Below, in pieces: positions 4,026 through 49,167 of a DNA stretch of 59,517 bases (within the stretch, counting starts at the first letter, position 1; every line of letters starts with the position of its first letter). Below the pieces are notes generated by a model. The model worked only from the letters and a program-made list of their open reading frames with translations, had not been told where the DNA came from and did no database searches. Where the stretch lies: contig CAMYJF010000007.1 in NCBI GenBank assembly GCA_947258555.1, forward strand, positions 1 to 59,517, in the 5' to 3' direction. The DNA is from an uncultured Eudoraea sp. GTDB lineage: Bacteria; Bacteroidota; Bacteroidia; Flavobacteriales; Flavobacteriaceae. The position numbers were made by a program, and so were the translations under genes.

Positions 4026-5162
4026 TTATTGGAGCCAATGCCGCTCTATCTCTTCTAATATTCTTTGGTAATCTGCTTCATGGTCCATAAAATCCATGTT
4101 GCTGATATCCAGGATAGCCGTTTTTTGTTCTTGCTGACTCTTTATAAAATCCAGATATCCCTTATTAATATGTTCAAGGTAATGCGGTTCAATTTCTTGC
4201 TCATAGCTTCTACCTCTTCTGCGGATGTTTTCCAGGAGTCGCTCTGTATTCTGATAGAGATAGACATACAGATCGGGTTTTTTGACATTCGTATACATGG
4301 AATTAAAGATCTTCCTGTATAAATTGAATTCATCTTTTTGAAGGGTCACCTGGGCGAAAATGAGGGATTTATAAATGTCATAATCGCTTACCATAAAATT
4401 CTTAAACAGATCGAATTGTGACGTATCATCCGTGAATTGCTGATACCTGTCTGCCAGAAATGACATTTCCAGGGGAAAGGCATACCTGCTTTGGTCTTTG
4501 TAGAACTTCGGAAGGAAAGGATTATCCGCAAATCGCTCCAGGACGATCTTGGCATTAAAATCTGTAGAGATCCTTCTGGCAAGCGAAGTTTTCCCAGCAC
4601 CTATGTTGCCTTCAATAGCCAAAAAGTTAAGCGCTGAAAAGAAAGAGGCACGATCAGCAGACAGTGGGGAATGCACTTTGGTAATGGCCGACCTGTCCGG
4701 ACATTCCTGCAACAAATTACGCGTGTCCTTTCCCAGCAACGGATGATAAAATTGCGGGGCAATATCTGCCAGGGGTTTAAGAACGAATAACCGGTTTTGA
4801 ATTTCAGGATGGGGAATGGCTACCTTGTCTGTTTGTATTACCTGGTCGCCATAATACAGAATATCGAGGTCGATCACACGTGATTGATAACCCGAATCCG
4901 GATCTCGAATACGCCCCATATTCTCTTCAATATTTATTAGGGCCTCCATCAATTCATCCGGCCTGAGCGAGGTCGTCACGCCTAAACACATATTAAGAAA
5001 ATCTGCCCCGTCAAATCCTAAGGCAGCTGTCTCGTAAACCGATGAAATAGCTTGAATATCACCTACTTGAGAGCCTATTGCATAGATAGCCTTTTGAAAT
5101 GCATAGAGCCTGTGGCCCTTATTGCTCCCAAAAGAAATATATGTAAGTGTAACATCTGACAT
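4026..5162 (-). CDS. folK: HPPK (FolK) - deoxynucleoside kinase fusion protein
   Basis: A two-domain cytoplasmic protein. Residues about 5-150 are 6-hydroxymethyl-7,8-dihydropterin pyrophosphokinase (folate synthesis), with SFGSNKG at the start and the RVIDLDILYYG metal and substrate motif. Residues about 180-378 are a deoxynucleoside kinase with Walker A EGNIGAGKT, an ERF motif, and RGRSYEQEI in the lid region. The fusion links folate supply to deoxynucleotide salvage. I place the start at the ATG at 5162 (MSDVTLTYISFGSN), which fits the FolK family; the frame stays open upstream to 5195, adding eleven hydrophobic residues that do not look conserved. It is divergent from sppA. This fusion is known from Bacteroidetes, so it is probably genuine and not an assembly error. 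Confidence 0.9.
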   Translation of the reverse strand: MSDVTLTYISFGSNKGHRLYAFQKAIYAIGSQVGDIQAISSVYETAALGFDGADFLNMCLGVTTSLRPDELMEALINIEENMGRIRDPDSGYQSRVIDLDILYYGDQVIQTDKVAIPHPEIQNRLFVLKPLADIAPQFYHPLLGKDTRNLLQECPDRSAITKVHSPLSADRASFFSALNFLAIEGNIGAGKTSLARRISTDFNAKIVLERFADNPFLPKFYKDQSRYAFPLEMSFLADRYQQFTDDTSQFDLFKNFMVSDYDIYKSLIFAQVTLQKDEFNLYRKIFNSMYTNVKKPDLYVYLYQNTERLLENIRRRGRSYEQEIEPHYLEHINKGYLDFIKSQQEQKTAILDISNMDFMDHEADYQRILEEIERHWLQ

Positions 5163-5201
5163 GATGAGCGGACAAATTACGTAAAAGAAAGTCACTTTGG
5201 T

Positions 5202-48046: not shown

Positions 48047-48697
48047 TCAAACCGAACAGTCGTCACAGTCGATGCCTCTTGACTTTTGGAAAGCTTCTCT
48101 CCCTTCTTTAATGGAAAAATATACAATCCCTGCCGTACCCACAATATCTATATAAGGGATCTCCCAAAGTTCCCATAAACCACTTGCAACTAATAAAATG
48201 ACGGACATATAGAGGCATACCTGATTGCATTTCGCATCAGCGATAATAGGTGCGGAGTTCAATTTTGTACCGACGGATATTTTAGCCCTAATAAGGAGCC
48301 ACATGGTGAGAATAGAGATCAACCCAATTATGACGCCTGCTGTTGTAGAAGTGGGCTGGTGCCCTTTTATGACATTGTAGATTGCAGATGCCGATAAAAT
48401 TACTACCAGGACATAAAAACACCATCCGGTAATTTGCAGGGCCCGGATCTCGAAAGGGCCCTTGTTCGAACCTGGGTTATTTTTGATGCGCAAAAACATT
48501 TGGGTAACTCCAAGAGCTGAAACGGTTTCCACAAAGCTATCCAGACCAAAGCCAAAAAGGGTTAGTGTCTCGTCCTGGATCCCGAAATAAGTGGCCACCA
48601 AACCTTCTGCAATGTTGTAAACCACTGTTATGATGGCCAGGCCTAGTGCCCAATTATAAAGCCTGTCTAGTTGTTTCCTTACTTCCTTCTTCTCCAT
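48047..48697 (-). CDS. CDF-like cation transporter lacking the C-terminal domain
   Basis: A 216-residue inner-membrane protein with six predicted helices. The layout follows the cation diffusion facilitator family, but the metal site is changed. In helix 2 the usual HxxxD or DxxxD is DxxxE (D53, E57 in GLDSFVETV). In helix 5 the usual HxxxD is CxxxC (C157, C161 in ADAKCNQVC). The cytoplasmic C-terminal domain (about 80 residues) is missing; the chain ends in GIDCDDCSV with two more cysteines. The ATG at 48697 (MEKKEVRKQ) is preferred over one 21 codons upstream, which would overlap the ankyrin gene. Confidence 0.82.
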   Translation of the reverse strand: MEKKEVRKQLDRLYNWALGLAIITVVYNIAEGLVATYFGIQDETLTLFGFGLDSFVETVSALGVTQMFLRIKNNPGSNKGPFEIRALQITGWCFYVLVVILSASAIYNVIKGHQPTSTTAGVIIGLISILTMWLLIRAKISVGTKLNSAPIIADAKCNQVCLYMSVILLVASGLWELWEIPYIDIVGTAGIVYFSIKEGREAFQKSRGIDCDDCSV

Positions 48698-48723: not shown

Positions 48724-49167
48724 TTAATTGGAGGTATAATTTCTTAGCCAACTGTAGCAATCATAATGCTTGAATTTCCTCGCATAATACAAGGCCGAAT
48801 AACCCCTGATCTTTATTGATGGATCAGCTCCTTTATCCAGAAGATATTTGATCATTTCCAATTGACCATATTTTGCAGCGAACATCAAAGGTGTTTTTAC
48901 TTCACAAACGGATTCAATATCGGCACCTCGCTCCACAAAATACTCCAGGGCTTTTAAAGATTTAAGTTTTATGCTTATGACCAAGTAGTTGTATGTTTTA
49001 CGACTTCCTACTTCCAGGCAGGCATTGACATTTTCAGTAGGGATCCACTCATCTAAGTATTCGGTATGTCCATATTTGATGGCCCAGGCGACTTCTTTTG
49101 ACAACTCCTGACTATAGGTAAAATACCCTATGGTAAAGAACAGAAAGAAGATGACAGGGCGTAACAT
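48724..49167 (-). CDS. Exported ankyrin-repeat protein
   Basis: A 147-residue protein with a signal peptide (VIFFLFFTIGYFTYSQ) and about three ankyrin repeats, the clearest being TPLMFAAKYGQLEMIKYLLD followed by KGADPSIKIRGYSALYYARK. Ankyrin repeats bind proteins. It is 27 bases upstream of the CDF-like transporter on the same strand, so they are probably co-transcribed, but no functional link is known. Confidence 0.83.
   Translation of the reverse strand: MLRPVIFFLFFTIGYFTYSQELSKEVAWAIKYGHTEYLDEWIPTENVNACLEVGSRKTYNYLVISIKLKSLKALEYFVERGADIESVCEVKTPLMFAAKYGQLEMIKYLLDKGADPSIKIRGYSALYYARKFKHYDCYSWLRNYTSN

What the first reader, a model, noticed from the sequence alone, without database searches (positions are those of the whole stretch)
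48047..48697. CDF-type transporter with DxxxE and CxxxC in the metal site and no C-terminal domain
Both metal-binding positions of the standard CDF site are altered: helix 2 has D53-E57 and helix 5 C157-C161 (HxxxD in classical zinc transporters). The regulatory C-terminal domain is absent, and two more cysteines end the protein. Cys ligands point to a softer metal (copper(I), cadmium, mercury) or a redox function. It is co-directional with an exported ankyrin protein.
Basis: partly seen in the sequence, partly recalled or inferred. Interest (0 to 1): 0.55.

Follow-up and report, generated by a model that had tools for sequence, protein, structure and literature searches.

The report
Short metal exporter with cysteine site
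This gene encodes a small membrane protein built like the core of bacterial zinc exporters, but with two cysteines in the predicted metal-holding pocket and no regulatory tail domain; it belongs to a widespread branch, for which I found no functional study, whose relatives often sit beside metal-resistance genes.

Summary
Window 48047-48697 (minus strand) encodes a 216-residue, six-helix protein of the Cation_efflux superfamily. CxxxC (C157/C161) aligns without gaps over YiiP's H153/D157, and D53/E57 over D45/D49, so the transport site reads DE-CC. The CTD is absent. In 84 family members examined, D53, E57 and C161 are invariant; position 157 is C (58), D (13), Q (7) or E (6). The window's clade (53 rows, several phyla) is all CxxxC, and 52 of 53 have a Cys-rich tail. 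No CDF site signature named in the text of the published 18-clade survey contains Cys. The window gene has no metal-related gene among 7 neighbours scanned. In sister branches, three QxxxC members follow a CmtR (Cd/Pb sensor), one CxxxC member lies beside a SmtB/NmtR-like regulator and a cadmium-type P-ATPase, and 8 of 8 DxxxC chromosomal loci lie near CzcA/B or P-ATPase genes. In the window's own clade the few metal neighbours are mixed: a copper-type P-ATPase, an ars operon, a zinc-type CDF. I prefer efflux of divalent Zn/Cd/Pb through a Cys2-acid site, with copper a serious rival. CTD-less CDFs are known; the cysteine site is the new part. The metal is not shown.

The parts
48047..48697 (-). 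Gene for the short CDF-type transporter, 216 aa (ATG at 48697)
   Evidence: PF01545 39.1 bits against cut-off 26.6; AF2 model with six helices, pLDDT 82.4; YiiP best fold match
48539..48541 (-). Codon of D53, helix 2, A-site position of YiiP D45
   Evidence: invariant in 84 of 84; profile alignment to YiiP
48527..48529 (-). Codon of E57, helix 2, A-site position of YiiP D49
   Evidence: invariant in 84 of 84
48227..48229 (-). Codon of C157, helix 5, position of YiiP H153; the variable site position (C/D/Q/E) in the family
   Evidence: C 58, D 13, Q 7, E 6 of 84
48215..48217 (-). Codon of C161, helix 5, position of YiiP D157; family signature
   Evidence: Cys in 84 of 84
48050..48079 (-). C-terminal tail (residues 207-216) with C211 and C214, after helix 6, low model confidence
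   Evidence: pLDDT under 50 at residues 209-216; 52 of 53 clade members have two or more Cys in the tail
48724..49167 (-). Small ankyrin-repeat protein, 26 bp upstream and co-directional; possible co-transcription
   Evidence: Ank_2 7.9e-15; among the loci clustered, next to the transporter only in the window, L001 and L002 (L089 is the same contig as L002)

Best explanation
It is a CTD-less CDF-fold exporter that moves a divalent borderline-to-soft metal ion (Zn2+, Cd2+ and/or Pb2+) out of the cytoplasm, probably in exchange for protons, through a site made of D53 and E57 (helix 2) and C157 and C161 (helix 5). Shown by sequence and model: the fold, the position and conservation of the four residues, the missing CTD, the conserved Cys-rich tail. 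Inferred: the metal, the direction, the proton coupling, dimer formation, and that the cytoplasmic Cys tail captures metal in place of the missing CTD. The two-thiolate-plus-acid site would work like the membrane site of ZntA-type P-ATPases (two Cys and an Asp; recalled, not tested here).
For: Pfam Cation_efflux over its cut-off in P0001 and matched at E 0.01 or better by 25 of 25 sequences of A1. The profile hits YiiP/FieF (3h90 E 0.0087, 2qfi E 0.015) with C157/C161 over H153/D157 and D53/E57 over D45/D49, no gap inside either motif. Fold: YiiP 8f6k, TM-score 0.78, prob 1.00; Z 21.0, 200 residues aligned to YiiP 5-210, its membrane part. 84 of 84 keep E31, D53, E57 and C161. Metal context of sister branches: CmtR Cd/Pb-sensor equivalog over cut-off in 3 of 10 ArsR neighbours scanned (L127, L129, L130), L033 at 140.4 of 150; L124 (CxxxC) next to a regulator whose best solved matches are NmtR and SmtB and to a P-ATPase over the cut-off of the cadmium family TIGR01512 and below that of the copper family; 8 of 8 chromosomal DxxxC loci with CzcA/CzcB or P-ATPase genes in the flanks held. 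In the window's clade, L116 precedes a CDF with ZT_dimer.
Against: Most of the Cd/Zn/Pb context comes from sister branches at about 30% identity. In the window's own clade 5 of 52 loci examined had a labelled metal gene in the flanks held, and these are mixed: L114 has a P-ATPase over the copper-type cut-off (595.9 against 397; it also passes the cadmium-family cut-off, 384.6 against 313.5) and an RND of the CusA/CzcA family; L102 a P-ATPase fragment that fits the copper model best, below cut-off; L088 a multicopper oxidase; L018 an ars operon (ACR3, ArsA, ArsD, ArsR); L116 a CDF. The window has no metal gene among the 7 neighbours scanned. Some plasmid relatives lie near copper genes. The published survey finds poor correlation between A-site make-up and metal (PMC5703985, section 10). 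YiiP profile E-values are modest (0.009-0.015), and no model coordinates were available to measure site geometry. I lowered this confidence from 0.6 to 0.5.
Confidence: 0.5

Rival explanations
1. It exports a strictly thiophilic metal, above all Cu(I) (or Ag(I), Hg(II)), through the Cys pair.
For: Two Cys in the pocket and two in the tail. In the window's clade L114 has a copper-type P-ATPase over its cut-off two genes upstream, L102 a neighbouring fragment that fits the copper model best, L088 a multicopper oxidase. Some plasmid relatives lie near multicopper oxidase, CopC, PCu(A)C or CueR genes.
Against: The pocket keeps two invariant carboxylates. The regulators directly upstream of relatives that could be typed are CmtR (Cd/Pb) or SmtB/NmtR-like; 6 of the 10 scanned pass only the general model. 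CDF proteins move divalent ions (established knowledge). MerC was only a chance-level Pfam hit, E 0.78.
Confidence: 0.2
2. It is an ordinary zinc (or zinc/cobalt) exporter; the Cys change is neutral tuning.
For: DxxxC relatives sit in Czc-type clusters with a Fur-family regulator; L116's neighbour is a ZitB/CzcD-like CDF; L124's regulator resembles NmtR, SmtB and CzrA; Zn binds Cys well in the PDB survey (PMC5703985, passages).
Against: The genome already has a CDF with HxxxD sites and a CTD, and C161 is fixed in 84 of 84, so the change is unlikely to be neutral.
Confidence: 0.17
3. It handles arsenic(III)/antimony(III) or another metalloid.
For: L018 lies in an ars operon: ACR3 and ArsA over their cut-offs, then ArsD, the transporter and an ArsR-type regulator. 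The Alicyclobacillus regulators carry an ELCVC stretch (its meaning in As/Cd sensors is recalled).
Against: Only 1 of 52 window-clade loci had ars genes recognised (its label set held ArsR but no ArsA, ArsD or ACR3). The pocket is acidic, poor for As(OH)3 (inference).
Confidence: 0.06
4. It is a redox or sensing membrane protein that no longer transports.
For: Cys pairs in helix 5 and in the tail.
Against: D53, E57 and C161 are kept together in 84 of 84, and C157 is replaced by D, E or Q in 26 of 84, which suits a metal ligand and not a disulfide; i, i+4 on one predicted helix.
Confidence: 0.03

Closest known systems
YiiP/FieF (3h90, 2qfi, 8f6k, 5vrf), CDF with DD-HD site
   Same: Six-helix fold, four A-site positions in helices 2 and 5
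   Different: Site DE-CC and not DD-HD; no CTD; 11-16% identity in the YiiP rows
CTD-lacking CDFs, e.g. MmCDF3 of Maricaulis maris (Zn/Cd binding, recalled; existence of the class seen in a passage of PMC6465983)
   Same: Membrane domain only
   Different: MmCDF3's sequence could not be compared here; whether it carries the xxxC signature is not known to me
Human TMEM163 (SLC30A11), short-tailed CDF-like zinc transporter
   Same: Short CTD, CDF-like membrane domain, acidic TM2 pair (PMC7926707, passages)
   Different: TM2 is DxxxD, not DxxxE; TM5 not compared
ZntA/CadA P-type ATPases (Zn/Cd/Pb)
   Same: Membrane site of two Cys plus an acid (recalled): works like, by chemistry
   Different: Unrelated fold, ATP-driven
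Proteins annotated 'cation transporter' next to ArsR/SmtB on plasmids (e.g. WP_219945822.1, WP_057909690.1)
   Same: Same family, DE-xC site, CTD-less length
   Different: About 30% identical; position 157 often Q, E or D; regulator directly upstream in 10 of the 20 fetched

Membership tests
Cation_efflux superfamily (PF01545) | Pfam score over the curated cut-off | tested here: met
   39.1 against 26.6 bits; 25 of 25 sequences of A1 match at E 0.01 or better
CDF fold (YiiP/ZnT type) | Six-helix membrane domain superposable on YiiP | tested here: met
   Six helices; TM 0.78; Z 21.0 over 200 residues, the highest unrelated row being Z 10.4
Canonical two-domain CDF (YiiP, CzcD, ZnT) | C-terminal cytoplasmic ZT_dimer domain | tested here: not met
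   No PF16916 in P0001 or the 25 sequences of A1; present in own paralogue L025
Published CDF A-site signature clades (18 clades) | Quartet ND-DD, DD-DD, DD-HD, EN-HD, HH-DH, HD-HD or HD-ED | tested here: not met
   Window is DE-CC; list from PMC5703985 sections 8 and 9; its supplementary table was not read
NCBIfam TIGR01297 (CDF superfamily model) | Score over curated cut-off | tested here: not met
   30.5 against 82.35 bits; the model has 285 positions, more than the whole protein
CDF | Proton-coupled transport of a divalent metal | not testable with these tools
   Needs a transport assay
CTD-lacking CDFs of the MmCDF3 kind | Orthology to MmCDF3 | not tested
   No MmCDF3 sequence at hand; one paper in the library names it
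TMEM163 | DxxxD in TM2 | tested here: not met
   Window has D53xxxE57, E57 in 84 of 84; TMEM163 motif from PMC7926707, passages

The most novel reading that the evidence does not exclude
A separate, CTD-less branch of the CDF superfamily has replaced the last acid (or His) of the transport site by Cys and uses the first TM5 position (C, D, E or Q at 157) as the tuning residue for soft and borderline metals, while in the CxxxC clade a Cys-rich cytoplasmic tail has taken over the metal-capturing or gating role of the lost CTD.
Probability: 0.35. Interest if true: 0.62.

Novelty: new variant of a known kind. Interest (0 to 1): 0.42.

Why it matters
Which residues set metal choice in CDF transporters is an open question; the published survey found little correlation between site make-up and metal. 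A natural series with a fixed D, E and C and one variable ligand (C/D/E/Q), in different gene neighbourhoods, gives a direct test by swapping one residue. It also asks how a CDF works without its CTD.

Tried and rejected
Operon with the ankyrin gene as a functional link: rejected; among the loci clustered it was beside the transporter only in the window, L001 and L002. Phage or viral carriage: one IMG/VR scan with A1 matched 7 stretches, none encoding a relative; no match in the phage collection at E 1e-5. A conserved partner gene in the window's clade: I scanned 75 of the 96 immediate neighbours listed (21 left out: near-copies of neighbours kept, those of L001 and L002, and short or overlapping frames); no Pfam family occurred in more than 2 of the 75. 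Profile-profile comparison of A1 with five canonical CDFs (A3) gave no usable alignment (probability 1.2%); I rely on the YiiP profile alignment, where the shared AD fixes the register. MAFFT likewise left gaps at TM5 in the six canonical CDFs, so they served only as outgroup. The association of tail Cys with C157 is not independent of descent: only 2 independent pairs, no significance. MerC, PAP2 and MARVEL Pfam hits were far below cut-off. Copper as a mere bystander in the window's clade: tested and not borne out, so copper is kept as a rival and the odds were changed (best reading 0.6 to 0.5, copper 0.12 to 0.2, ordinary zinc 0.2 to 0.17, arsenic 0.05 to 0.06).

Papers: searches (6 listed; 14; one found, 20 listed; 1; 5; 6; 3; 4; 4), 86 (4). 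None of the titles or opening abstract lines listed describes a CDF with Cys at the A-site; the library holds open-licence papers only. Kolaj-Robin 2015 and Russell & Soulimane 2012 are recalled or seen as citations, not read. I read passages of PMC5703985, PMC7926707, PMC4995437, PMC6465983 and PMC4531530, and sections 8, 9 and 10 of PMC5703985. A passage of PMC4531530 reports CmtR-like regulators in a possible operon with CzcD in Frankia, so a CmtR-CDF link in itself is not new.

Full report
What is there. The minus strand of 48047-48697 encodes P0001, 216 aa. An in-frame TTG would lengthen it to 237 aa; L001 and L002 have an ATG at the place taken here, but the start is not proven. Pfam Cation_efflux covers residues 23-206. 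The AlphaFold model from 25 sequences has six helices (2-41, 45-73, 81-111, 119-146, 149-178, 183-206), mean pLDDT 82.4, pTM 0.77, with residues 209-216 under 50. Its best matches are YiiP membrane domains (8f6k, E 3.8e-5, TM 0.78; Z 21.0 over 200 residues, YiiP 5-210), with ZnT10, ZnT1, ZnT3, ZnT7, ZnT4 and ZnT8 also listed; the highest clearly unrelated row scores Z 10.4.

Is CxxxC at the HxxxD position? A profile of the 25 sequences finds two YiiP/FieF chains in the PDB (3h90 E 0.0087; 2qfi E 0.015). In both alignments the stretch ADAKCxxxC lies on ADMLHxxxD without a gap, and D53xxxE57 on D45xxxD49 (YiiP numbering as in PMC5703985). A comparison with five CzcD-like CDFs gave no usable alignment, and MAFFT left gaps at TM5 in that outgroup; this is a weakness, offset by the shared AD in YiiP.

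How conserved is it? I aligned 84 relatives: the window, 24 loci from the GTDB scan, 39 from unnamed Bacteroidota genomes (40 regions fetched in 44 and 45, one a duplicate left out), and 20 from plasmids (of 68 records, chosen by me). One search used search peptides that include CNQVCLYM, so its 24 loci are biased towards the Cys pair; the other 59 were found by whole-protein similarity to P0001. Of the hits I took only this part. E31, D53, E57 and C161 are invariant in 84 of 84; position 157 is C 58, D 13, Q 7, E 6. On the tree (quick search, SH-aLRT only, column 157 left out, long branches flagged) the window's clade has 53 rows, all CxxxC, support 94; a second cluster of five CxxxC rows from Bacillota plasmids lies elsewhere, so the tree needs at least two changes of this label. 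The clade also has D42 (52 of 53) and E43 (50 of 53) between helices 1 and 2, found in none of the 31 other rows. Two or more tail Cys occur in 52 of 53 clade rows, against 0 of 13 DxxxC, 4 of 7 QxxxC, 3 of 6 ExxxC and 3 of 5 other CxxxC rows. These are related sequences; only two independent pairs exist, so the tail link is descriptive. dN/dS against L001 is 0.07; against L002, 0.03 with dS 2.8, near saturation.

Spread. 14 of 149 genomes of the window's own family and 82 of 395 of its phylum, the window's genome counted in both, carry a match at E 1e-8 or better. Of the 14, six have an intact match at least 43% identical; a seventh (G030) has a 49% fragment in a stretch with four stops; the others are near 30%. 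Record titles name Bacteroidetes, Neomarinimicrobiota, Chloroflexi, Aminicenantes, Nitrospirae, Desulfuromonadales and Geobacter. The genome's other CDF (L025, 303 aa) has HxxxD in helix 2, an apparent HxxxD in helix 5 and a ZT_dimer domain, so an ordinary CDF is already present.

Surroundings. In the window the 7 neighbours scanned are a NAD(P)-binding protein, a metallophosphoesterase, an ankyrin protein, two unnamed proteins, a GIY-YIG-like protein just under its cut-off and TspO: no metal-resistance gene. The ankyrin and NAD-binding neighbours recur only in L001 and L002 among the loci clustered. In the clade, 5 of 52 loci had a labelled metal gene in the flanks held, which are up to 6 kb and shorter at contig ends: L018, L088, L102, L114, L116. 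L017 was not counted because my gene caller missed the target there. These five are mixed. L018 lies in an ars operon, with ACR3 and ArsA over their cut-offs, ArsD upstream and an ArsR-type gene downstream. L114 has a His-rich P-ATPase two genes upstream over the copper-type cut-off (595.9 of 397) and over the cadmium-family one (384.6 of 313.5), and RND genes, one over the CusA/CzcA cut-off. L102 has a 253-aa P-ATPase fragment that fits the copper model best, below cut-off. L088 has a multicopper oxidase. L116 precedes a CDF with ZT_dimer, over the CDF cut-off and closest to ZitB among the named equivalogs, below its cut-off.

Sister branch in Flavobacteriaceae. All 8 chromosomal DxxxC loci had such genes (Fisher p 5e-7 against 5 of 52, but loci are related, and five labels came from L102, L104 and L105 themselves). 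In seven of the eight, CzcA, CzcB, the transporter, a Fur-family gene and a P-ATPase lie in one direction within four genes; L110 has P-ATPase, Fur-family gene and CDF but no CzcA hit. The Fur-family neighbour of L104 passes the Pfam FUR cut-off and no named NCBIfam subtype, and its RND gene passes the CusA/CzcA cut-off.

Plasmid relatives. Of 20 fetched, 10 have an ArsR/SmtB gene directly upstream on the same strand (L028, L029, L032, L033, L034, L124, L126, L127, L129, L130). Of these ten regulators, three (L127, L129, L130, all QxxxC) pass the NCBIfam cut-off for CmtR, the Cd(II)/Pb(II) sensor; L033 (QxxxC) misses it narrowly (140.4 of 150); the other six pass only the general metalloregulator model. 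The regulator of L124 (CxxxC) matches NmtR and SmtB best among solved structures, and next to the transporter is a P-ATPase over the cadmium-family cut-off and below the copper-family one. That of L034 (ExxxC) matches Rv1994c best, which is CmtR (recalled). Three alphaproteobacterial DxxxC loci (L036-L038) lie near ArsR, lspA and a longer cation transporter; lspA beside metal exporters is known from lead operons (recalled). L027 has an ArsR gene about 3 kb away and L125 a regulator two genes upstream. L030, L031, L035, L128 and L131 have no gene annotated as ArsR in the stretch shown; L031 follows a CzcA-type RND gene. Copper genes also occur in several of these plasmid stretches. I ran no background rate for ArsR on plasmids.

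How it most likely works. CDF exporters hold a divalent ion between helices 2 and 5 and release it outside in exchange for protons (established knowledge). Here two carboxylates and two thiolates would hold it. Such a mixed site suits Cd2+, Pb2+ and Zn2+, as in ZntA-type pumps (recalled), better than Cu+, and the typed regulators of sister branches point the same way; the few neighbours in the window's own clade do not decide it and leave copper open. The cytoplasmic Cys tail may gather metal in place of the CTD. The conserved D42/E43 pair between helices 1 and 2 may help release. All of this paragraph after the first sentence is inference, apart from the neighbour results cited above.

Against what is known. 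CTD-lacking CDFs are recorded as numerous and of unclear function (PMC6465983, passage). The 18-clade survey lists ND-DD, DD-DD, DD-HD, EN-HD, HH-DH, HD-HD and HD-ED and sets Cys-containing quartets aside, saying cysteine is less found in CDF quartets. DE-CC and its DE-xC relatives are outside that list as far as the text shows. A CmtR-like regulator in a possible operon with CzcD has been noted in Frankia (PMC4531530, passage). I call it a new variant of a known kind, moderately interesting because one variable ligand in a fixed frame makes metal choice testable.

Noticed in passing
window 4026-5195 (-): One 389-aa ORF that reads like HPPK (FolK) fused to a deoxynucleoside kinase (by eye); such fusions in marine Bacteroidota are recalled, not checked.
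   Followed up: no
window 48724-49167 (-): Small ankyrin protein with a likely signal peptide (by eye), beside the transporter only in the nearest relatives.
   Followed up: partly
L088 (G007:C14): A second copy of the transporter in a genome that also has one with a Cys tail (L087); it keeps DE-CC but has no tail Cys.
   Followed up: no
L018:2150-6998: CxxxC member inside an ars operon (ACR3, ArsA, ArsD, transporter, ArsR-type gene) of an uncultured Desulfuromonadales.
   Followed up: partly
L114:1-10584: CxxxC member between a copper-type P-ATPase and RND efflux genes, with a YHS-domain protein directly upstream.
   Followed up: partly
L020:6676-7428; L033:6696-7331: An isoprenylcysteine-methyltransferase-like (ICMT) membrane protein follows the transporter in both a Chloroflexi and a Streptomyces locus; meaning unknown.
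   Followed up: no
L105:6046-6843: In several DxxxC loci a neighbour of about 265 aa joins an N-terminal extension to a CDF membrane domain; not analysed.
   Followed up: no
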